NCBI GenBank assembly: GCA_001898095.1
Contig: MKSH01000276.1
Coordinates: 43,299 to 55,294 of the forward strand
Direction: 5' to 3'
From: Solirubrobacterales bacterium 70-9
GTDB taxonomy: Bacteria > Actinomycetota > Thermoleophilia > Solirubrobacterales > 70-9
Length of the DNA: 11,996 nt
The notes beneath the pieces are model-generated. The model saw nothing but the letters and a program-made list of their open reading frames with translations. It was not told where the DNA came from and ran no database searches. Shown one piece after another: positions 3 through 11,996 of this stretch (position 1 is its first letter; each line of letters begins with the position of its first letter). Made by a program: the position numbers and the translations under genes.

Positions 3-284
3 CCCGACACCAAGGCCTCCGACGACGCCGACGAGAAGAACGGCAAGAAGACGACGAAGCTGTTCGTCAACCGCGGCGAGCGCAGCGGGATCGACGAGGA
101 GGACCTCCGCTGGGCCCTCCGCGAGGGCGCCGTCCTGCCCGACGAGGCCGTCCACGACGTCCGCGTCCTGCACCGCTTCTCCTTCGTCGAGGTCGACCCC
201 GACCAGGCCGAGCGCACGGTCGAATTCCTCGACGGCACGAAGCTGAAAGGCAAGGAGATCCGACTCGAGGTCGCCCGCAGCTAG
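3..284 (+). CDS. DEAD-box RNA helicase, C-terminal fragment with DbpA-type RNA-binding domain (5' end outside window)
   Basis: This is the 3' end of a gene that begins before the window; the frame is open from base 3 to a TAG at 282-284 (93 residues). A short charged linker rich in Asp, Lys and Glu is followed by about 72 residues beginning KLFVNRGERSGI and ending GKEIRLEVARS. That pattern (a first beta strand LFVNxGxxxG, a middle strand SFVEV, and a final KGKxIRLEVA strand) matches the small RRM-like DbpA RNA-binding domain found at the C terminus of many bacterial DEAD-box helicases, where it targets structured RNA such as rRNA during ribosome assembly or cold adaptation. The helicase core is not visible, so the assignment rests on the tail domain alone. 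The stop is followed at once by the gene-free repeat region. Confidence 0.8.
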   Translation, partial: PDTKASDDADEKNGKKTTKLFVNRGERSGIDEEDLRWALREGAVLPDEAVHDVRVLHRFSFVEVDPDQAERTVEFLDGTKLKGKEIRLEVARS

Positions 285-357
285 AGCTGCGGAGGTGGCC
301 GGCGGGGGCCGGCGGGGGACGGAAGGGATGGGGCGCGGGGAAGCTGGCGCCCGGGAA

Positions 358-421
358 GGGACGCGGCCCTCTCGTAGGCGGTCCGGGCAGGCTGTGACCG
401 CCTACGAGAGGGCCGGGTCCC
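358..421 (+). repeat. Hairpin A of copy L (conserved 14-nt loop)
   Basis: Arms 358-382 and 397-421 pair over 25 positions with a single mismatch (G363 against G416); the inner 19 pairs are perfect. The loop 383-396 reads CCGGGCAGGCTGTG. The same loop occurs in four hairpins of the window and is the exact reverse complement of the loop region of hairpin C at 682-695. Confidence 0.93.
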
Positions 422-453
422 GGGGAGAGGGCGAGGGTGCGCGTCCCGTGCGG

Positions 454-474
454 GTCGCGGCGGAGGTCCGTGAC
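454..474 (+). repeat. Small hairpin G of copy L
   Basis: GTCGCGG (454-460) pairs with CCGTGAC (468-474) over 7 positions with one G-T wobble, enclosing a 7-nt loop. In copy R the wobble is replaced by a Watson-Crick pair (GTCACGG with CCGTGAC), which weakly supports a maintained structure. Confidence 0.5.
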
Positions 475-532
475 GATCTGCGCGGGTCCGGTGCGGAACT
501 CCGGGTTCGTTAAGGAGGTTCCGGAGCCCTGA

Positions 533-566
533 GTGAGTTGACCACACCAGGGTGTGGTCAACTCAC
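533..566 (+). repeat. Palindrome B of copy L (15-16 bp arms, AG centre)
   Basis: The arm TGAGTTGACCACACC (534-548) is followed by AG (549-550) and then by its exact reverse complement (551-565); the outer pair G533-C566 extends it to 16 bp. Such a short centre makes it nearly a perfect DNA palindrome: it could be a protein binding site, a cruciform, or an RNA hairpin with a loop opened to about six bases. Two relatives lie in copy R (11461-11492 and 11522-11553). Confidence 0.93.
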
Positions 567-572
567 CCAGAC

Positions 573-605
573 CGGCTTTTTCCGCCCCCGGCCCGGAAAA
601 GGCCG
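573..605 (+). repeat. Hairpin D of copy L
   Basis: CGGCTTTTTCCG (573-584) pairs with CGGAAAAGGCCG (594-605) over 12 positions with one T-G wobble, around a 9-nt C-rich loop. It resembles a terminator stem, but the T run lies in the ascending arm and not after the stem. The matching segment in copy R lies at 11422-11453. Confidence 0.7.
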
Positions 606-655
606 ACCGCGTCCCCCGACCTGCGCCGGAACCCGCGCACTTCCCTACGGAAGGC

Positions 656-721
656 TCGCGTCCTGGGCGTCTCGCGGCGGCCACAGCCTGCCCGGGCCGC
701 CGCGAGACGCCCAGGACGCGA
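656..721 (+). repeat. Hairpin C of copy L (27-bp perfect stem)
   Basis: Arms 656-682 and 695-721 are perfectly complementary over 27 bp, with a 12-nt loop (683-694). With the two closing bases the top reads CACAGCCTGCCCGG (682-695), the exact reverse complement of the loop of hairpin A. Read on the minus strand, hairpin C is a relative of hairpin A: CTCG, a 1-2 base variable position, GGCGG, a pyrimidine, then the shared loop and the mirrored arm. This is the longest perfect inverted repeat I found in the window. Confidence 0.95.
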
Positions 722-791
722 CCGTCCCCGGCCGCAGGGGCCGCGAACTACGCCGTCCCCGCCTGCAGACCCGAACCCCGCCCGCCCCCGG

Positions 792-3080
792 TCAGACGCC
801 GACGGTCAGGCCGAGGCGGGTGCCCTTGCCGCCGCTTTCGCGGGTGGCGACGACGATGCCGAGCTTCTTCGTCCGCCCTTCACGGATGTGGGCGATCAGC
901 TTCGGCGTGGTCGCCAGGGCCGGGAAGCCGATCTTCAGCGTCACGGTCGGCTGCGGGGTGAGCAGCTTGATCCGGATCGTGCCCGGAGTGGAGGTCGCGG
1001 TGAACTTGATCCGGGCGCCGTTTGCGCCGCGGACGACGATGCCGGCGGCGAGGGTCCTGGCGTTCTTGGCGACGTCCAGCGCGGGCGGCACTTGGACCGT
1101 GAAGTTCGTCAGCGTCGCGCCTTCGCGGGCGGCCAGTCCGAAGGTCAGGCGCGGCTTCCCCTTCAGCACCTTGGCGAAGCGCGCGTTGCTGACCGTGGCC
1201 GGGGTGGGCGCCGGCGCGGTCGCCTTCACGGCCGCCGTCGAGGCCGGGGCGGGCGGCGGCGCAGGCGGGTTCACGAGGGCGCAGAGAGAGGCGCCGAGGG
1301 TCGAGGCGATCGGCGTGCCGAGCCCGCTCGCCATGTCGTAGCCGACCTTGGCCGGGAAGGGTTCGTTGTCGTCGAAGCGGTCGGTGGTCGGTTTGAGGGC
1401 GCCGAACGGGCCGGTGACGTCGCGGAAGTTGGCCGCGTAGGAGGTCCCACCGAGGCTGTAGAGGGCCGGGTTGACGAAGCCGACCGTGTGGCCGCCGCAA
1501 GCGGCGGAGGCGTTGGTGAGGGCGGTGATGGCGGCCCAGAAGGGAGCCGCGGCGCTGGTCCCGCCGTTCACTTCCCAGGCTTCTTCGGCGTGGATCACCC
1601 AGCCGGTCTCGACCGCGGCATCGGCGGAGACGTCGGGGACCTGGCGGCAGAAGCCGGAGGTGAGGCCGCAGGGCGTGCCGCTGGAGAGCGCTTCGACGAC
1701 GCCGAGCGTCGCGCTCGCCCCCTGCTGGTAGGCGGGCATCGCGAAGTGCGCCGAGCGGCCGCCGCCGCCCGCGCCCCAGGACGGGGCCTGGTTCCAGAGG
1801 AAGTTGTTCGGCGAGCCGACCGCTTCCATCCGGGTGCCGCCGACGGAGGTGGCGAAGGGGCTCGAGCCGGGGAAGTCGACCTGCAGCGAGCGGTCGTCGT
1901 TTTTCGAGGTCCAGCAGTCGGTCGAGCCGTCGTCACCGGAGGCGACGAAGAAGGACTGGCCTTGGGCGGCGGCCTCCTGCAGCAGCGTGTTGGTCGCCTC
2001 CATTTCACTGCCTTCCTCGTCCGGCTCGCAGATGCCCCAGGAGCTGGACATCACCTTGGCGCGGTTCTCGCTCGTGTACGCGGTGAGGATTTCGATTTCC
2101 GCCGGGCCTTCGTTTTCGGCCTGGTAGACGACGATGTGGGCGTCCGGGGCGAGCCCGGCGATGTTCTCGATGTCCATCGCCGCCTCGCCGTCTTCGCCTT
2201 CGTATTCGCCCGGGCCTTCGCCGACGTTCACCGCTTCGACGCTGGCGTGGGTGCCGTAGCAGGCCTGGAAGTCTTCGATGTCTTTGGGCAGGAACGGTTC
2301 GAGCTCGAGCAGAGCGACGGTCTGGCCGGCGCCGAAGTTGCCCGCCGCGTAGAAGCCCGGCAGGTCGTAGGCGGCGGCGATCTGGTCGATCGTGTTGCCG
2401 TGTTCGCTGCTGCCGATCGCGCTCGCTTCGGCGCACGGCTGGGGACCGCCGGTGACGACCGAGGTCGTCGCGGGCGGGACGGCGGCCGCGGTCGTCAGGG
2501 TGCCGGCAGCGGAGCCTGCGTCGGCGCGCTCCGATTCCTTCAGGTTGTCGAGGCCGAGCACGCCTTGGACGTAAGGGGCGGCCGACGCGGGGACGCGCGG
2601 GGCGCTGCGGTTGGCGTAGGCGATGCGACCGCCGGCCGTGTCGACCCGGTCGATCGTGGTGCCGAAGGCATCTTCGGCCTCCTCCGCGGTTGCACTGACC
2701 GGCAGCGAGAGGTTGTTGGCGCTCGGCGCGCCGACTTCGAGTCCCGCGGCGACGAGCGCTGCGCGCACCGTCGCCACCTGGGCCGCGGTGGGGGCGAAGC
2801 GGGCGGCGAACTGGGGCACCGAGAGGTAGTCCCCGTACACGGGCGAGCCGGGCGTGGCGACTTCTTCGGCAAACGCTTCCAGCGCCGCCGGGTCGCGCGG
2901 TTCGAGCGCCACCTGCAGGCTCAGCTGCCGTTCCGGCGAGACCGCCCCGGCAAGCGACGCGCCCGCGGGCAGTTCAGGGGTGGAGCCGATCCGGACCCCG
3001 GTCGCGGCTCCGGCGGGAGCGGCGGCGACGCAGAGGGCGAACAGGCAGAGGCAGATCGCGGCGAGCGGGCGAGAGCGCAT
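792..3080 (-). CDS. Secreted sedolisin (peptidase family S53) with pro-domain and C-terminal extension
   Basis: A 762-residue serine-carboxyl protease that cleaves proteins outside the cell, typically at acid pH. Residues 1-26 form a signal peptide ending AGAA. Residues about 50-146 match the pro-kumamolisin activation domain. The catalytic domain starts near 210 and shows the family's residues: the Glu-Asp pair E299/D303 in GEAAMDIE, oxyanion Asp D383 in ASGDDG, and nucleophile S509 in NGGTSAAAP. D554 (FRDVTGP) and D582 (GYDMASGLGTP) lie in the usual calcium-site motifs. A Pro/Ala-rich linker (605-627) leads to about 130 extra residues rich in Val, Thr and Lys, probably a beta-sandwich wall or substrate-binding domain of unknown role. 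It lies 67 bp downstream of the response regulator on the same strand. The ATG at 3080 is preceded by AAGGGC and TATACA, neither a good ribosome site nor a clear promoter. Confidence 0.93.
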   Translation of the reverse strand: MRSRPLAAICLCLFALCVAAAPAGAATGVRIGSTPELPAGASLAGAVSPERQLSLQVALEPRDPAALEAFAEEVATPGSPVYGDYLSVPQFAARFAPTAAQVATVRAALVAAGLEVGAPSANNLSLPVSATAEEAEDAFGTTIDRVDTAGGRIAYANRSAPRVPASAAPYVQGVLGLDNLKESERADAGSAAGTLTTAAAVPPATTSVVTGGPQPCAEASAIGSSEHGNTIDQIAAAYDLPGFYAAGNFGAGQTVALLELEPFLPKDIEDFQACYGTHASVEAVNVGEGPGEYEGEDGEAAMDIENIAGLAPDAHIVVYQAENEGPAEIEILTAYTSENRAKVMSSSWGICEPDEEGSEMEATNTLLQEAAAQGQSFFVASGDDGSTDCWTSKNDDRSLQVDFPGSSPFATSVGGTRMEAVGSPNNFLWNQAPSWGAGGGGRSAHFAMPAYQQGASATLGVVEALSSGTPCGLTSGFCRQVPDVSADAAVETGWVIHAEEAWEVNGGTSAAAPFWAAITALTNASAACGGHTVGFVNPALYSLGGTSYAANFRDVTGPFGALKPTTDRFDDNEPFPAKVGYDMASGLGTPIASTLGASLCALVNPPAPPPAPASTAAVKATAPAPTPATVSNARFAKVLKGKPRLTFGLAAREGATLTNFTVQVPPALDVAKNARTLAAGIVVRGANGARIKFTATSTPGTIRIKLLTPQPTVTLKIGFPALATTPKLIAHIREGRTKKLGIVVATRESGGKGTRLGLTVGV

Positions 3081-6001: not shown

Positions 6002-6820
6002 ATGCAGTCCGTCCGGAGACGACTCACGTACGCAAACGTGATGTCGTCGATTGCAGTTTTCCTCGTCGTAGCAGGCGGTAGCGCCTTCGCGGCCAGCCAG
6101 CTCGGCAAAAATACCGTCGGTACCAAGCAGTTGAAGAACAATGCCGTGACCGCGGCGAAGATCAAGAACAACGCGATCACCGGCGGCAAGATCGCCAACG
6201 GAGCCGTGACCGCCTCGAAGCTCGGTGGCGCTGCCGTGGGAGCCTCGAATCTGGGCGCGAACTCCGTCGGCCCCACGGCGCTCAGCGACAACGCTGTGAC
6301 CGGTTCGAAGATCGCCAATGGCGCAGTCAGCGGCGACAAGATCGCCAACGACGCCGTAGGGGGAGAAAAGATCGCCAACGGTGCGGTTACGAGCACGAAG
6401 ATCGGCGCCGGCGCAGTGGGGAGCACCCAGTTGGCCGAAGCGGAGCGCTCGGAGGCGTTCAAAGCAGAAGGCTCCGGCCTGCTCAACCTGGAACTGGCGC
6501 AGCCCGTCAGCCAGGCCCCGACGGTGATTCAGAGCTTGGCCCTCCCGCTGGGCGGCCAATACGTGGTTACCGGCGAGACGGAGTTGATCCTTTCGACCGG
6601 GACCAGCCAGTTCTCGCAGTGTTTCCTGGCCGATGAAGGGGCGAGCATTGCCACGGCGGCCGATACCTACGAAAAAGGACTCCTGTCGGTGAGCGGCGGC
6701 GTGAGCATGACCGGCGTCTCGAACGGCGGCACGATCACCCTCGCCTGCCGATCGAGCGGGGCAGGTACGTTTGCCTTCAACCGGCAGATCGTTGCCATCA
6801 GGGTCGGTTCGGTCAACTAA
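6002..6820 (+). CDS. Exported decapeptide-repeat protein (N-A-V-T-x-x-K-I-x-N repeats) with Cys-containing C-terminal domain
   Basis: A 272-residue protein. Residues 1-30 hold an Arg-rich start and a hydrophobic segment ending AFA, a signal peptide or membrane anchor. Residues 37-146 are eleven consecutive ten-residue repeats with consensus N/G-A-V-T-x-x-K-I-A-N, in which small and beta-branched residues recur every five positions; this suggests a regular beta-helical or trimeric stalk. Residues 150-272 form a separate, probably beta-rich domain with two Cys (C207, C249) that may form a disulfide. Such proteins are common in Solirubrobacterales, but I know of no established function; a surface stalk displaying a globular head is an inference. 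It is transcribed alone, with a promoter-like sequence, a strong ribosome site and a terminator. Its codon use is visibly less GC-rich than the adjacent enzymes, especially early in the gene. Confidence 0.88.
   Translation: MQSVRRRLTYANVMSSIAVFLVVAGGSAFAASQLGKNTVGTKQLKNNAVTAAKIKNNAITGGKIANGAVTASKLGGAAVGASNLGANSVGPTALSDNAVTGSKIANGAVSGDKIANDAVGGEKIANGAVTSTKIGAGAVGSTQLAEAERSEAFKAEGSGLLNLELAQPVSQAPTVIQSLALPLGGQYVVTGETELILSTGTSQFSQCFLADEGASIATAADTYEKGLLSVSGGVSMTGVSNGGTITLACRSSGAGTFAFNRQIVAIRVGSVN
6110..6439 (+). repeat. Eleven tandem 30-bp units encoding decapeptide repeats
   Basis: Each unit encodes ten residues. Several units share AAGATCGCCAACG-type sequence, for example around 6188, 6308, 6338 and 6368, so parts are close enough at the DNA level to recombine and change repeat number in multiples of 30 bp without breaking the frame. 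Confidence 0.85.
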
Positions 6821-9010: not shown

Positions 9011-9069
9011 GCGTCGAACCCTAGATCACGCCTGTGGCCGTCCGGGCGAGGGCCGCCGGGGCGGGCGGC

Positions 9070-9918
9070 TCAGCTGTAGTCGTTCCAGCCGGCGAACTCG
9101 CGGCCGGCGAACTTCTGCAGCTCGGGGACTTCCGCGGCGAAGCGGGTCTTCAGGGTCGCCACGAGGTCGTCAGGGAGGACGGGCTTCGGCGCGCTCGGTT
9201 TGTCCGGGTCGTGGACGACTTTCTCGACCACCCAGCGCATGCGCTCGGGCAGGCGGTCGAAATTGCGGTCGAAGGAGCGGAAGCCCGGCAGTTTGATCAG
9301 CTTCTCCATCAGCTGGTATTTGTCGCCCGACTTGGCCGCCGACTTCTCCCACTGGCGGTCGAACTGCTCGGAGCTGAAGTTCTCGTCGACGCCGGCGTAG
9401 GCGAAGGCCTTGCGCATCGTCGTGTCGCGGTCCGACTGCAGCTCCTCCTGGGTGATGACCTCGATCTGGGAGCGGTCGAAGTGCTCGAGGTAGGGCTGCA
9501 GCTGCATCCAGTAGCGGGAGCGGTTCACGTACTGGGTCTCCGGTTCGTTCAGGACCGTGAGCATGTCGCGGGTCTCGTAGCCGGCGCCGGTCGCGTGCAT
9601 CCAGTGGCTGAGGATGCGCTTGATCGGGTCGCGCACCATGTAGAGCAGCTTCGCGTCCGGGCAGTGGGTGCGGATGCGCTCGGCGACGCCGCCGTAGCGG
9701 GGCAGGTTGGTGTAGTGCGGGGAGGACTCGCCGCGGACCTTGAAGCGCTCGTCGAAGCGGCTCGCGTACCAGTCGAGGCCGAGGTCCCAGTTCAGCTCGG
9801 TGACGAAGAAGTTCAGCTCCTTCGGCTTCGACATCTGGATCTCCGGATGGAGGCCGAGGTAGTGGTGGATGCTCGTCGTGCCGCACTTCAGGCCGCCGAT
9901 GATGATCAGGTTCGGCAT
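9070..9918 (-). CDS. PAPS-dependent sulfotransferase (heparan/NDST-like family)
   Basis: A 282-residue cytoplasmic enzyme that moves a sulfo group from PAPS to a hydroxyl or amine, often of a glycan or lipid. The 5'-phosphosulfate loop is GGLKCGTTS (8-16), the likely catalytic Glu is E34 in PKELNFF, as in heparan sulfate sulfotransferases, and the 3'-phosphate motif is MVRDPIKRILSHW with R96 and S104. The acceptor is unknown. The ATG at 9918 is preferred because homologous proteins usually begin right before the PAPS loop; the frame stays open to a GTG at 10059, which would add 47 residues of Pro- and Arg-rich sequence without recognisable domain and leave only 21 bp to the divergent membrane-protein gene. 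It is the first gene of the leftward operon. Confidence 0.9.
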   Translation of the reverse strand: MPNLIIIGGLKCGTTSIHHYLGLHPEIQMSKPKELNFFVTELNWDLGLDWYASRFDERFKVRGESSPHYTNLPRYGGVAERIRTHCPDAKLLYMVRDPIKRILSHWMHATGAGYETRDMLTVLNEPETQYVNRSRYWMQLQPYLEHFDRSQIEVITQEELQSDRDTTMRKAFAYAGVDENFSSEQFDRQWEKSAAKSGDKYQLMEKLIKLPGFRSFDRNFDRLPERMRWVVEKVVHDPDKPSAPKPVLPDDLVATLKTRFAAEVPELQKFAGREFAGWNDYS

Positions 9919-10080
9919 CGCCGCGTGGGCTTTGGGGCGCCGCCGGCGCGCGCTTTTGCGATCGGCGCTGTAGCGCTCGCGGGCACGGGCGCACATCGCC
10001 TCGTCGGCGGGGTCTGGGAGCAACGGCGGCGGCAAGGTGTGCGTGTCGGTATCCGGCACGAGCGTGGCATTCTAGCTGTG

Positions 10081-11103
10081 ATGCCGGTTCTCCTCGTTCA
10101 GACGCCGCTCGGCGACCTCGCGTCGAGCCTCGAACACTTCTTCAACGCGACCACCGAATTCTTTCGGCACCTCTCCGAAGTGCACTGGTCCCAGTTCGGT
10201 CTGGCACTGCTCTGCCTGCTGGGGATGCAGTTGGTGCGGGCCTGGGCGTGGCGCAACGTGCTGAAGGCGGCCTACCCGGAGAAGCGGATCGGCTTCACCC
10301 ATCTCGCCGCCGCCTACCTGGCCGGGGCGGGAATCAACGCGATCATCCCGGCCCACGCGGGGGACGTGACGAAAATCTTCCTGGTCAAGCGCCAGATCCC
10401 CGACTCCTCCTATCCGGCGGTGACCTCCTCCTACATCGTGCAGACCGTCTTCGACACTTCGGTCGGGATCCTGGTGCTGCTCTACGCGATCAGCCAGGGG
10501 CTGCTGCCGCCGCTCCCCGAGCTGCCCCACCTGCCGGCCTTCGAGGTCTCCTTCTGGGCCAACCACCCGAAGACTTTGGCGATCACGGTCGCCGTCCTCC
10601 TGGTCCTGATCGTGGTCGGGGTCTGGTACCTGAACCAGCGCGTGCGGCGCTTCTGGGCGCGGGTCAAACAGGGCCTGGTCATCCTCACCCGGCCCGGGGA
10701 CTACATGCGCCAGGTCTTCGCCTGGCAGGGGGTCGGCTGGCTCCTCCGTTTCGCCGCCTTCTGGTTCTTCCTCGAGGCCTTCGGCCTAAAGGGGTCGGTC
10801 GGCAACGTGATGCTGGTGATGAGCGTCCAGGCGATCGCCAACATCGTCCCCTTCACCCCGGGTGGGGCGGGCGCCCAACAGGCCCTCCTCGTCGCCACCC
10901 TCCACGGCCCCTCCCGCGCCGCCGTCCTCTCCTTCTCGGTCGGCACCCAGATCGCGATGGCCGCCTGGTCCGTGGTCCTCGGCTTCGCCGCCATCTTCCT
11001 CGTCTTCCGCACCACCGACTGGCGAGGCCTGATCCGCCAGGCCCAGGAGGATGCCGACCGCGAGGACGGCGACGGCGGCGGCGGCGCGGCGGTGGCGACC
11101 TGA
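10081..11103 (+). CDS. Polytopic membrane protein, LPG-synthase transmembrane / flippase-like family
   Basis: A 340-residue integral membrane protein with about seven or eight hydrophobic segments, clear ones near 38-55, 115-140, 165-183, 217-235, 240-258 and 285-308. It carries the family's paired motifs: NAIIPAHAGDVTKIFLVKR (86-104) in the first half and NIVPFTPGGAGAQQALL (254-270) in the second. The family covers the flippase half of MprF-type proteins and many stand-alone proteins thought to move lipid-linked molecules; no aminoacyl-transferase domain is present. The tail after 320 is Asp/Gly-rich and cytoplasmic. ATG 10081 is chosen since upstream sequence in frame is antisense to the sulfotransferase; GTG 10078 is an alternative. 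It is divergent from the sulfotransferase operon, so a shared role in modifying and exporting a lipid or glycan is possible but unproven. Confidence 0.88.
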   Translation: MPVLLVQTPLGDLASSLEHFFNATTEFFRHLSEVHWSQFGLALLCLLGMQLVRAWAWRNVLKAAYPEKRIGFTHLAAAYLAGAGINAIIPAHAGDVTKIFLVKRQIPDSSYPAVTSSYIVQTVFDTSVGILVLLYAISQGLLPPLPELPHLPAFEVSFWANHPKTLAITVAVLLVLIVVGVWYLNQRVRRFWARVKQGLVILTRPGDYMRQVFAWQGVGWLLRFAAFWFFLEAFGLKGSVGNVMLVMSVQAIANIVPFTPGGAGAQQALLVATLHGPSRAAVLSFSVGTQIAMAAWSVVLGFAAIFLVFRTTDWRGLIRQAQEDADREDGDGGGGAAVAT

Positions 11104-11140
11104 GAGGTTGGGGCAGGTGAGGGTCCGGGCCCCTGCGGCG

Positions 11141-11307
11141 GGGGACGGCGGGATCCGTGGCCCGGGCGGCGGGGACGGCGCACTTCGGGGCCCGGCGGCC
11201 GGCGTTCGCACTTCCCCGTAGCCGGTACGGGGAACTGCGAACGCAGATGGGGGACGGCGCACGGCCGGGGGACGGCGCGCTCCGGGGCGCCTGCCGCGGG
11301 GACGGTC
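11141..11307 (+). repeat. Five dispersed GGGGACGG boxes
   Basis: GGGGACGGCG occurs at 11141, 11171, 11250 and 11268, and GGGGACGGTC at 11298, in 170 bp. The reverse-complement boxes follow hairpin C of copy L at 720-729 and 751-760. The two closest to the element keep the same order and about 30-base spacing in both copies, so they are part of, or an appendage to, the composite repeat. Confidence 0.65.
11202..11244 (+). repeat. Hairpin F, outside the core of copy R
   Basis: Arms 11202-11220 and 11226-11244 pair at 18 of 19 positions (one C-C mismatch) around the 5-nt loop GCCGG. It has no counterpart in copy L. It lies 99 bp beyond the membrane-protein stop and lacks a T run, so it is not a typical terminator. 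Confidence 0.8.
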
Positions 11308-11308
11308 C

Positions 11309-11368
11309 CGTCCTGGGCGTCTCGTGGCGGCCCGGGCAGGCTGTGGCCGCCGCGAGACGCCCAGGACG
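11309..11368 (-). repeat. Hairpin C' of copy R
   Basis: Arms 11309-11332 and 11345-11368 pair over 24 positions with one T-G wobble (T11325 with G11353) that is a C-G pair in copy L. The top reads CCGGGCAGGCTGTG at 11332-11345 on the plus strand, complementary to the loop of hairpin A'. Confidence 0.93.
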
Positions 11369-11421
11369 CGAGGCTTTAGGGGGAAGCGCGCGGGTTCCGG
11401 CGCAGGTCGGGGGACGCGGTC

Positions 11422-11453
11422 GACCTTTTCCGGGCCGGAGGGCGGAAAAAGCC
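11422..11453 (-). repeat. Hairpin D' of copy R
   Basis: On the minus strand GGCTTTTTCCG faces CGGAAAAGGTC; all 11 positions pair if two G-U wobbles are allowed. The loop differs from copy L by a one-base insertion, one of the indels that break reading frames across the repeat. Confidence 0.6.
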
Positions 11454-11460
11454 GGTCGCA

Positions 11461-11492
11461 CGGGTCGACCGCGCCAGGGCGCGGTCGACCCG
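11461..11492 (-). repeat. Palindrome E, second member of the B palindrome family, only in copy R
   Basis: The arm CGGGTCGACCGCGCC (11461-11475), a central AG, and the exact reverse complement (11478-11492) give the same geometry as palindrome B: two 15-bp arms and a 2-nt centre. Its arm differs from the B arm at positions 1, 3, 6, 11 and 13, always a transition, and each change is mirrored in the other arm. Confidence 0.93.
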
Positions 11493-11521
11493 CTCGGCGG
11501 GTCGGAAGATCGGGCCCTGCA

Positions 11522-11553
11522 TGAGTTGAACACACCAGGGTGTGTTCAACTCA
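11522..11553 (-). repeat. Palindrome B' of copy R
   Basis: The arm TGAGTTGAACACACC (11522-11536), AG, and its exact reverse complement (11539-11553). It differs from B of copy L by one base per arm (C to A, G to T), a compensating pair that keeps all 15 base pairs. Confidence 0.93.
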
Positions 11554-11612
11554 CTCAGCGCTCCGGAACCTCCTTAGGGAACGCGGAGTTCCGCACCGGA
11601 CCCGCGCACCTC

Positions 11613-11633
11613 GTCACGGATCCTCGCCGTGAC
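11613..11633 (-). repeat. Small hairpin G' of copy R
   Basis: GTCACGG (11613-11619) pairs perfectly with CCGTGAC (11627-11633) around a 7-nt loop. The corresponding stem in copy L has a wobble at one position. Confidence 0.5.
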
Positions 11634-11668
11634 CCGCACGGGACTCGCACCCTCGCCCCTCTCCCCGT

Positions 11669-11728
11669 GACCCGGCCCTCTCGTAGGCGGTCACAGCCTG
11701 CCCGGACCGGCTACGAGAGGGCCGGGTC
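11669..11728 (-). repeat. Hairpin A' of copy R
   Basis: Arms 11669-11691 and 11706-11728 pair over 23 positions with one G-G mismatch (11687 with 11710). The loop 11692-11705 reads CACAGCCTGCCCGG on the plus strand, the exact reverse complement of the top of hairpin C' at 11332-11345. Confidence 0.93.
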
Positions 11729-11784
11729 CCTTGGCCGTCTCTTCCTCAGTACCCTCCCGTCCTTTCCCGTCCCCCGCGAACCCT

Positions 11785-11996
11785 CTAGTCCGACCACCCC
11801 GGATACCGAGGGTCGACCTGCCACTGCCACGGCGCCGCTTCCGCGGCCGGGAAGTCGTAGTGGTTGCGGCCGGGGAGGGTCTCGAGGGGGACGAGGGCCG
11901 GGTCCTGGGAGGCGAGGAGTTCGGTGCCGGCGGCGGACGCGACGTCGGCGGCGGTCGCGGTGCGGCGGAGGGAGCGCCAGCCCAGGGACGGGCGGT
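11785..11996 (-). CDS. C-terminal fragment of an unidentified protein (5' end outside window)
   Basis: The minus-strand frame is open from the window edge (first full codon at 11994) to a TAG at 11787-11785, giving 69 residues that end PRYPGWSD. The segment includes LRRTATAADVASAAGTEL, LETLPGRNHYDFPA and PWQWQVDPRYPGW. Codon use is GC3-rich and the composition is balanced, unlike the Arg/Pro-rich translations of the other frames, so I believe it is a true gene end. I do not recognise the family; the aromatic C terminus may be part of an enzyme. Its stop lies a few bases from copy R of the composite repeat. Confidence 0.7.
   Translation of the reverse strand, partial: RPSLGWRSLRRTATAADVASAAGTELLASQDPALVPLETLPGRNHYDFPAAEAAPWQWQVDPRYPGWSD

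What the first reader, a model, noticed from the sequence alone, without database searches (positions are those of the whole stretch)
305..760. Composite multi-hairpin intergenic repeat, present twice and inverted, in convergent gene junctions
Copy L (about 305-760) and copy R (about 11264-11780, inverted) share a fixed order of structures: A, G, SD-like box, B, D, C. Both fill the gap between the 3' ends of converging genes and nothing else in those gaps looks coding. The conserved architecture, position and lack of a conserved reading frame suggest a dispersed functional or selfish element rather than gene remnants. It may work as a bidirectional transcription barrier or structured RNA, or be a mobile BIME-like unit. 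I know of no named family with this layout.
Basis: partly seen in the sequence, partly recalled or inferred. Interest (0 to 1): 0.8.

Follow-up and report, generated by a model that had tools for sequence, protein, structure and literature searches.

The report
Mosaic hairpin repeats at gene ends
This bacterial genome carries about 140 scattered copies of a roughly half-kilobase, apparently non-coding DNA element, bounded by two facing hairpins with the same 12-base loop and found mainly just after the ends of genes; it looks mobile, but what moves it is unknown.

Summary
Copies L and R are two of 141 clusters found in this 4.2-Mb genome. The terminal-hairpin model has 105 or more matches in six genomes of the genus, this one included, 0-1 in the other six, and 0 in 38 further family genomes. 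A complete copy is bounded by two long hairpins: strongly covarying stems and a conserved 12-nt loop, identical in 172 of 201; the two loops face each other in 97 of 99 neighbouring pairs. The interior is a mosaic of exchangeable hairpins. Copies favour convergent and avoid divergent gaps. Copy R is a lineage-specific gain: in six relatives the flanking genes overlap or lie within about 15 nt, here 681 nt apart. Best reading: a non-autonomous mobile mosaic element with palindromic terminal inverted repeats, read as DNA by an unidentified enzyme; BIME-like in habit but not a GTAG/CGTC REP (no Y1 transposase match in 12 of 12 genus genomes; longer stem and loop, no unpaired tag). Loop-loop RNA kissing is disfavoured. 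A two-way transcription role is plausible, untested. New variant of a known kind.

The parts
285..791 (+). Copy L: whole intergenic unit between the stop codons of the DbpA-domain gene (3-284, +) and the S8/kumamolisin-like gene (792-3080, -)
   Evidence: gene calls and Pfam; family matches
298..357 (+). Copy L outer flank, A side: G-rich, degenerate repeats of GGGACGG type
358..421 (+). Copy L terminal hairpin A; loop 384-395 CGGGCAGGCTGT
512..527 (+). 'SD-like box' AAGGAGGTTCCGGAGC; its AAGGAGGTTCC part is the 3' arm of a small predicted interior hairpin; shared by some copies only
529..570 (+). Copy L interior hairpin module B1 (TGAGTTGACCACAC-CAGG-); exchangeable with other modules, in either orientation across copies
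573..604 (+). Copy L interior hairpin D with T-rich and A-rich arms
   Evidence: sequence; fold
656..721 (+). Copy L terminal hairpin C; loop 683-694 ACAGCCTGCCCG, reverse complement of loop A
722..791 (+). Copy L outer flank, C side: C-rich on the + strand, like the tandem-repeat flank of other copies
11104..11784 (-). Copy R: whole unit (681 nt) between the stop codons of the LPG-synthase-TM gene (10078-11103, +) and the convergent neighbour (from 11785, -)
11110..11300 (-). Copy R outer flank, C side: GGGGACGGCG-type tandem repeats
11202..11244 (-). Copy R palindrome of type B7 (GCGTTCGCA...), outside hairpin C
11306..11371 (-). Copy R terminal hairpin C; loop 11333-11344
11422..11457 (-). 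Copy R interior hairpin D
11461..11492 (-). Copy R extra interior hairpin (CGGGTCGACCGCGC-CAGG-), absent from copy L
11522..11553 (-). Copy R interior hairpin module B1
11669..11728 (-). Copy R terminal hairpin A; loop 11693-11704
11729..11784 (-). Copy R outer flank, A side (next to the minus-strand gene)

Best explanation
A non-autonomous mobile mosaic element restricted, as far as searched, to one branch of one genus. Its ends are terminal inverted repeats of about 60 bp, each itself a long palindrome with a conserved, asymmetric 12-nt loop. SHOWN by computation: copy number, facing loops, compensatory stems, exchangeable interior hairpins, placement after gene ends, presence/absence at orthologous junctions. 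INFERRED: an enzyme encoded elsewhere recognises the hairpin (loop plus a few fixed stem pairs) as DNA at each end separately and moves the unit; insertions survive where they do least harm, just after stop codons and above all between convergent genes; interior hairpins are exchanged between copies by recombination or gene conversion. Once in place, the symmetric layout (G-rich entry, hairpins, C-rich exit on both strands) may help to end transcription from both sides.
For: 141 clusters in the own genome. Loops face each other in 58 of 60 neighbouring pairs here and 39 of 39 in relatives. Loop identical in 172 of 201 hairpins. On 34 diverse hairpins 17 of 23 stem pairs have changes on both sides and 91.7% of cells pair, 0 of 500 shuffles as high on either. 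Interior modules swapped between copies that align well outside them. Of 121 clusters with both neighbours 62 convergent, 47 tandem, 12 divergent, against 21, 87, 69 of 177 element-free gaps of 100 nt or more (Fisher p 1.8e-13 for convergent, 1.3e-8 for divergent); relatives 27, 22, 1 of 50. Copy R junction: the two genes are convergent in all 11 relatives; in six they overlap or lie within about 15 nt, here 681 nt apart; no terminal-loop hairpin within the 900 nt scanned downstream in any of the 11. Further presence/absence pairs; of 4 copy-bearing junctions conserved with G007, 3 are empty there. Loops of a pair vary independently and G-U pairs are 7 of 748 cells, which fits recognition of each end as DNA. 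Range.
Against: No transposase or recombinase was tied to it: no Y1_Tnp match in 12 of 12 genus genomes; Y2_Tnp gave none either, but its control did not ring, so that shows nothing. No autonomous copy and no clear target-site duplication seen. Some junctions are shared or reused between species: 1 of 4; relatives' copy-flanking genes match copy-flanking genes here in 16 of 28 cases against 13 of 68 for other genes; one relative has a single family hairpin at the copy L junction. Presence/absence alone does not tell gain from loss except where, as at copy R, all 11 relatives lack it. Mismatches in stems lean to A-C over G-U on the CGGGCAGGCTGT strand, which pure two-strand symmetry does not predict. 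In one search one of five measures (further pair types) was reached by 63 of 500 shuffles.
Confidence: 0.66

Rival explanations
1. Host-useful two-way transcription end-point: transcripts from either side meet a G-rich stretch and a stable hairpin, then a C-rich stretch that could load Rho; copies are kept because they limit read-through between convergent genes.
For: Placement after gene ends and depletion between divergent genes; facing loops mean that a transcript entering from either side meets the same loop first. In 28 convergent two-hairpin copies the entry flank is 45% G and 28% C and the exit flank 45% C and 28% G, with the expected skew sign in 27 of 28 on each side; 26 element-free convergent gaps over 60 nt have median half-gap skews of 0.00 and -0.05.
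Against: Intrinsic-terminator scan: 0 sites in the copy L region, 1 in the copy R region, 0.3 expected in each. The same junctions in relatives and the sister species do without it. It does not by itself explain spread or the conserved loop. No expression data seen.
Confidence: 0.2
2. A structured RNA whose two terminal hairpins kiss through complementary 12-nt loops.
For: In copies L and R the two loops are reverse complements; strong predicted fold.
Against: Loops of one copy do not covary: identical in 14 of 39 facing pairs of relatives against 15.1 expected, 43 of 58 against 39.9 here. No strand preference in tandem gaps. No Rfam match in the window.
Confidence: 0.05
3. A true REP/BIME moved by a RAYT (Y1) transposase.
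For: Paired inverted palindromes in mosaics after gene ends, as described for REPs (PMC3733652, passages seen).
Against: No Y1_Tnp match in 12 of 12 genus genomes while the control rings in 5 of 14; stems and loop longer; no fixed unpaired tag at the foot.
Confidence: 0.04
4. Decayed gene or phage remnants, or an assembly artefact.
For: The assembly is fragmented (278 contigs, 84% complete, 5.7% contamination).
Against: Same family in six genomes of the genus and under five MAG names in another collection; no gene called inside the clusters by codon usage, except one weak call overlapping a copy on C7; no match in plasmids and phages by BLAST or in viral contigs by an exact pattern.
Confidence: 0.02

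Closest known systems
REPs and BIMEs of the GTAG and CGTC superfamilies (PMC3733652; abstract, background, start of results and 12 passages seen)
   Same: Palindromes often in facing pairs, mosaic clusters, many copies, between convergent and unidirectional genes
   Different: Here stems of about 20-27 bp and a conserved 12-nt loop, against stems of 6-13 bp (GTAG) or 8-9 bp (CGTC) and mostly short loops; no fixed unpaired tetranucleotide tag; no Y1_Tnp match in the genus. The word Actinobacteria does not occur in that paper
MITEs (RUP, NEMIS, ERIC, Nezha and others, as named in PMC3733652)
   Same: No coding capacity seen, terminal inverted repeats, next to genes, presence/absence at orthologous sites
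   Different: Each terminal repeat is itself a long palindrome with an asymmetric loop; loop-to-loop 242-504 nt here and 220-856 in relatives against 70-300 bp; no parental transposon found; no clear target duplication
IS200/IS605-type elements with end hairpins (recalled, no call)
   Same: Sequence-specific hairpins near both ends
   Different: Hairpins here are inverted to each other; no Y1 transposase match
Uptake-sequence pairs that double as terminators in Neisseria and Haemophilus (recalled, no call)
   Same: Facing copies of a short conserved word at convergent gene ends
   Different: The word lies in the loop of a covarying stem inside a large mosaic unit

Membership tests
REP/BIME (GTAG or CGTC superfamily) | 20-40 bp palindrome with short stem and mostly short loop | tested here: not met
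   Hairpins of 64 and 66 bp in copy L, 12-nt loop; 23-column stem across 34 rows
REP/BIME (GTAG or CGTC superfamily) | Unpaired GTAG or CGTC tag at one end | tested here: not met
   Foot is paired or runs into G-rich sequence; no fixed unpaired tetranucleotide seen in the flanks printed (the output was cut in the middle)
REP/BIME (GTAG or CGTC superfamily) | RAYT (Y1) transposase in the genome | tested here: not met
   0 of 12 genus genomes at E 0.001; control rings in 5 of 14. CGTC REPs are said to lack a dedicated one, so this weighs on GTAG REPs
REP/BIME (GTAG or CGTC superfamily) | Located between convergent and unidirectional genes | tested here: met
   62 and 47 of 121
REP/BIME (GTAG or CGTC superfamily) | Mosaic of several palindromic motifs | tested here: met
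MITE | Terminal inverted repeats, no coding capacity | tested here: met
   coding judged by a codon-usage caller only
MITE | Presence/absence at orthologous sites | tested here: met
MITE | Target-site duplication | tested here: inconclusive
   None visible by eye; flanks grade into G-rich sequence up to the stop codons
MITE | Parental autonomous transposon with the same ends | tested here: inconclusive
   No gene called between facing hairpins within 0.8 kb (G000, 744 kb held) or 1.1 kb (relatives' loci); wider spacings and whole genomes not scanned
Rfam RNA families | Match at gathering score | tested here: not met
   0 matches in the window
Intrinsic terminator | GC-rich stem followed by a T run | tested here: inconclusive
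   0 sites in copy L region, 1 in copy R region, 0.3 expected in each; other copies not scanned

The most novel reading that the evidence does not exclude
A so far undescribed kind of bacterial transposition or recombination system, in which an unknown enzyme recognises a 12-nt loop (CKGGCAGGCTGT) presented on a long, freely varying DNA hairpin at each end of the mobile unit, whose cargo is a shuffled set of other hairpins and whose surviving target is the space just after stop codons.
Probability: 0.27. Interest if true: 0.8.

Novelty: new variant of a known kind. Interest (0 to 1): 0.6.

Why it matters
The tagged REP families described in PMC3733652 are found mainly in Proteobacteria, with members in some other phyla, and how such palindromes spread is still open. 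Here a family whose gaps take up about 2% of the assembly (89.6 kb) is found in six genomes of one genus, while six others of the genus have 0-1 match. Conserved junctions serve as empty sites, and loop and stem define what is recognised. That makes two questions directly testable: what moves hairpin-ended DNA where no Y1 transposase is found, and whether such insertions change how convergent genes end.

Tried and rejected
Only two copies or a recent duplication: rejected. Loop-loop kissing RNA: disfavoured by independent loop variation. RAYT-driven REP: fails membership. Y2/IS91: nothing found, but its control did not ring, so it shows nothing. Intrinsic terminators: no clear excess in the two window copies. 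Plasmid, phage and viral spread: no match (the viral scan used an exact pattern, so diverged forms could be missed). Strand test by mismatches: A-C exceeds G-U on the CGGGCAGGCTGT strand in every group counted, but much of it is one fixed pair third from the loop and related copies are not independent, so I draw no conclusion. A stop-codon bias at element-facing gene ends (TAG 106 of 178 against 144 of 459 other ends) is unexplained; element-free convergent ends less than 30 nt from the next gene are also TAG-rich (24 of 52), so part may go with convergent ends as such. Literature searches for this family listed no paper that describes it by title or abstract start; the library holds open-licence papers only.

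Limits of the counts. Genes come from a home-made codon-usage caller trained on seven window ORFs and refined on held sequence. Background gaps come from the same stretches as the copies, plus three stretches taken as extra sequence. The hit lists showed only the first 100 of 179 and about 100 of 209 places, so some clusters are missing; a copy split over two contigs may count twice; so 141 is neither exact nor a strict lower bound. 20 of 141 clusters lacked a neighbour on one side and were left out of the orientation counts, as were 56 of 106 of the relatives. In one search repeats, hairpins with N and those near locus ends were dropped and each stem counted once. The 34 rows were picked as differing at 5 or more positions with stems of 18 or more, so they favour well-paired hairpins. 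In one search the element gaps were chosen because they hold terminal hairpins, so that excess is partly built in. One search ran with stricter filters (over 40 genomes) and scored at most 113 places a genome. One search drew 299 genomes and did not include G003, G005, G008, G009, G010. Gap lengths in relatives at the copy R junction were read by eye from the sequences printed, and the copy L junction in relatives.

Full report
Setting. The window is part of a 64.7-kb contig of a genome of 4.2 Mb in 278 contigs, 84% complete with 5.7% contamination. Copies of the family elsewhere come from records titled Actinomycetota bacterium SZAS-9, -10, -14 and -15 and Solirubrobacterales bacterium RYN_247. 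Copy L lies between a gene with a DbpA RNA-binding domain (3-284, +) and a pro-kumamolisin/S8 protease gene (792-3080, -); copy R between a lysylphosphatidylglycerol-synthase-TM gene (10078-11103, +) and a minus-strand gene whose stop codon is at 11785.

The observation. Copies L and R share the order of hairpins in opposite orientation and are 84-96% complementary in three blocks of 76-160 nt and 76% in a fourth of 127 nt. The copy L core folds with z-scores of -12.1 (plus) and -9.5 (minus) against 100 dinucleotide shuffles. The window has no Rfam match and no tRNA.

It is a large family. A BLAST search of the own genome scored 40 of 275 candidate places and reported 145 matching stretches. 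An A-hairpin pattern with up to 3 mismatches has 95 places, 0 for the reversed control; the exact loop word CGGGCAGGCTGTG 179 against 1; a wider loop pattern 209 against 5. In 744 kb gathered around these places I find 201 terminal hairpins in 141 clusters; 60 clusters have two hairpins and 81 one, the single ones often with N in the gap or an altered partner. The gaps that hold them add up to 89.6 kb, about 2% of the assembly.

Anatomy of the ends. Both terminal hairpins are built alike: a stem mostly of about 20-27 bp and a 12-nt loop that reads CGGGCAGGCTGT in 172 of 201, and CGGGCAGGCTGT or CTGGCAGGCTGT in 131 of 145 hairpins of relatives. The stems fall into two main groups (A and C) that share positions. 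On 34 diverse hairpins 17 of 23 pairs show changes on both sides and 91.7% of cells pair; no shuffle of 500 reaches either value and slid partners stay at 37-47% paired; the measure 'further pair types' is reached by 63 of 500. G-U pairs are 7 of 748 cells. Neighbouring loops face each other in 58 of 60 pairs here and 39 of 39 in relatives; two copies carry one hairpin with the loop the other way round. So the unit has terminal inverted repeats of about 60 bp, each itself a palindrome.

The loops do not answer to each other. If the two loops paired in RNA, a change in one should be matched in the other. In relatives, where G and T at loop position 2 are both common, the loops of a pair are identical in 14 of 39 against 15.1 expected by independence; in the own genome 43 of 58 against 39.9. 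Each loop follows the family consensus, not its partner. I take that as a sign of a common factor that reads each end separately.

The interior is a mosaic. Copies that align well outside carry different hairpins at the same place, for example TGAGTTGACCACAC-CAGG in some and GACTTTCACCCTGC-CCTG in others. Eight interior hairpin types recur, 3 to 36 times each (the last type, B7, also lies outside hairpin C). B1 lies in either direction equally often (12 and 11), whereas B3 (10 to 1), B4 (21 to 1) and B6 (19 of 20) keep one direction. Twelve copies share a loop-to-loop distance of 465-467 nt; copies with CTCTCATAGG stems, several of them of that length, still show swapped modules. No gene is called inside the clusters apart from one weak call overlapping a copy on contig C7. 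Outside the terminal hairpins the flanks run to the neighbouring stop codon through G-rich sequence read from the gene: GGGACGG-type repeats on the A side, longer tandem repeats containing GGGGACGG on the C side.

Placement. Of 141 clusters 121 have a called gene on both sides: 62 convergent, 47 tandem, 12 divergent. Element-free gaps of 100 nt or more in the same stretches are 21, 87 and 69 of 177; Fisher p is 1.8e-13 for convergent and 1.3e-8 for divergent. In relatives 27, 22 and 1 of 50. In tandem gaps the element points with the genes 21 times and against them 26 times. The outer edge of hairpin A lies a median 41.5 nt after a facing gene end, of hairpin C 93 nt. In 28 convergent two-hairpin copies the left flank is 45% G and 28% C and the right flank the mirror image.

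Mobility. The copy R junction is the clearest case. Both flanking genes are found, convergent, in all 11 relatives. In six (G001, G004, G006, G007, G008, G010) they overlap or lie within about 15 nt; here 681 nt lie between them. In the other five (G002, G003, G005, G009, G011) the gap holds other sequence or other genes, in G003 and G011 with unrelated palindromes. No terminal-loop hairpin was found in the 900 nt scanned downstream in any of the 11. At the copy L junction the protease gene was matched in 2 of 11 relatives; by eye, one shows no terminal hairpin before the DbpA-domain gene, the other carries a single terminal hairpin of this family. Other presence/absence pairs: an SZAS-10 copy against a 44-nt gap on own contig C88, and a copy in locus L312 against a 189-nt gap on C263; a copy on C29 against a 116-nt gap in G007. 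Among 18 gene junctions conserved between the held parts of G000 and G007, four carry a copy here; three have none in G007 and one has. Against pure mobility, genes beside copies in relatives match copy-flanking genes here more often (16 of 28) than other nearby genes do (13 of 68), so some positions are shared or reused.

Range. A covariance model of the terminal hairpin finds 105 or more matches, 113 being the ceiling, in six genomes of the genus, one match in G005, none in the other five of the genus and none in 38 further genomes of the family. The six rich genomes have 3.8-4.7 Mb, the six others 2.4-3.4 Mb. A loop word over 299 genomes of the class stays at 0-3 per genome outside G000, G006 and G007 (G003, G005, G008, G009 and G010 were not in that draw). 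No match in viral contigs (exact pattern), plasmids or phages.

What moves it. The Y1 transposase family, said to move GTAG REPs, gave no match in 12 of 12 genomes of the genus while the control rings in 5 of 14 reference genomes. The Y2 family also gave nothing, but its control did not ring. The genomes are 78-100% complete, so a gene could be missing from one; missing from all six element-rich ones is less likely. No copy with an internal gene was seen at the spacings examined. Other transposase, recombinase and reverse-transcriptase families were not searched. The mover is unknown.

Comparison with the known. From PMC3733652 I saw the abstract, background, the start of the results and twelve passages. 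REPs there are 20-40 bp, with stems of 6-13 bp (GTAG) or 8-9 bp (CGTC), mostly short loops and an unpaired tag; they lie mainly between unidirectional and convergent genes and cluster into BIMEs. Our element shares the habit and the mosaic nature but fails size, tag and transposase. The MITE description there (70-300 bp, terminal repeats, non-coding) fits in kind but not in size or in the palindromic ends. Hence it works like a BIME or MITE, belongs to neither REP superfamily, and its parent is unknown.

Verdict. A new, so far genus-restricted variant of bacterial mobile palindromic repeats, well supported as a family and as inserted DNA; the mechanism of movement and any effect on transcription are inferred.

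Noticed in passing
window 9034-11103 (+): The 689-aa ORF is probably not one gene: relatives align along it, but many with stop codons in the first half; the caller gives 9070-10059 (-) and 10078-11103 (+).
   Followed up: partly
window 3-284 and G000:C276:42088-43287: The DbpA-domain ORF follows a 400-aa same-strand ORF after 13 nt; may be one DEAD-box helicase gene split by a frameshift, in the assembly or real.
   Followed up: no
L115 (G019, another genus), 1517-1554: A hairpin almost identical to interior module B1 (TGATGAGTTGACCACAC-CATG-) stands there, while the terminal-hairpin model finds nothing in that genome: some interior modules may be independent palindromes with a wider range.
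   Followed up: partly
G007:C91:157902-158264 and 63708-64116: Orthologous gaps lacking the terminal loop carry lone palindromes resembling types B1 and B4.
   Followed up: partly
G000 gene 3' ends facing copies: TAG stop codons are over-represented (106 of 178 against 144 of 459 others), often followed by GG; element-free convergent ends under 30 nt from the next gene are also TAG-rich (24 of 52).
   Followed up: partly
window 6002-6820 (+): 272-aa ORF without a Pfam match that contains 30-nt direct repeats with AAGATCGCCAACGG-like units.
   Followed up: no
same-genus genomes G000-G011: Genomes rich in the element have 3.8-4.7 Mb, the others 2.4-3.4 Mb.
   Followed up: no
L361 (G003) and L365 (G011), downstream of the LPG-synthase gene: Unrelated palindromes (GTGGAGCTTTAGTTGC..., TGTCGAGTTTGTTCC..., CGAGGAGTGCATATGC...) sit in this junction region in other species: perhaps a common landing place for palindromes.
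   Followed up: no
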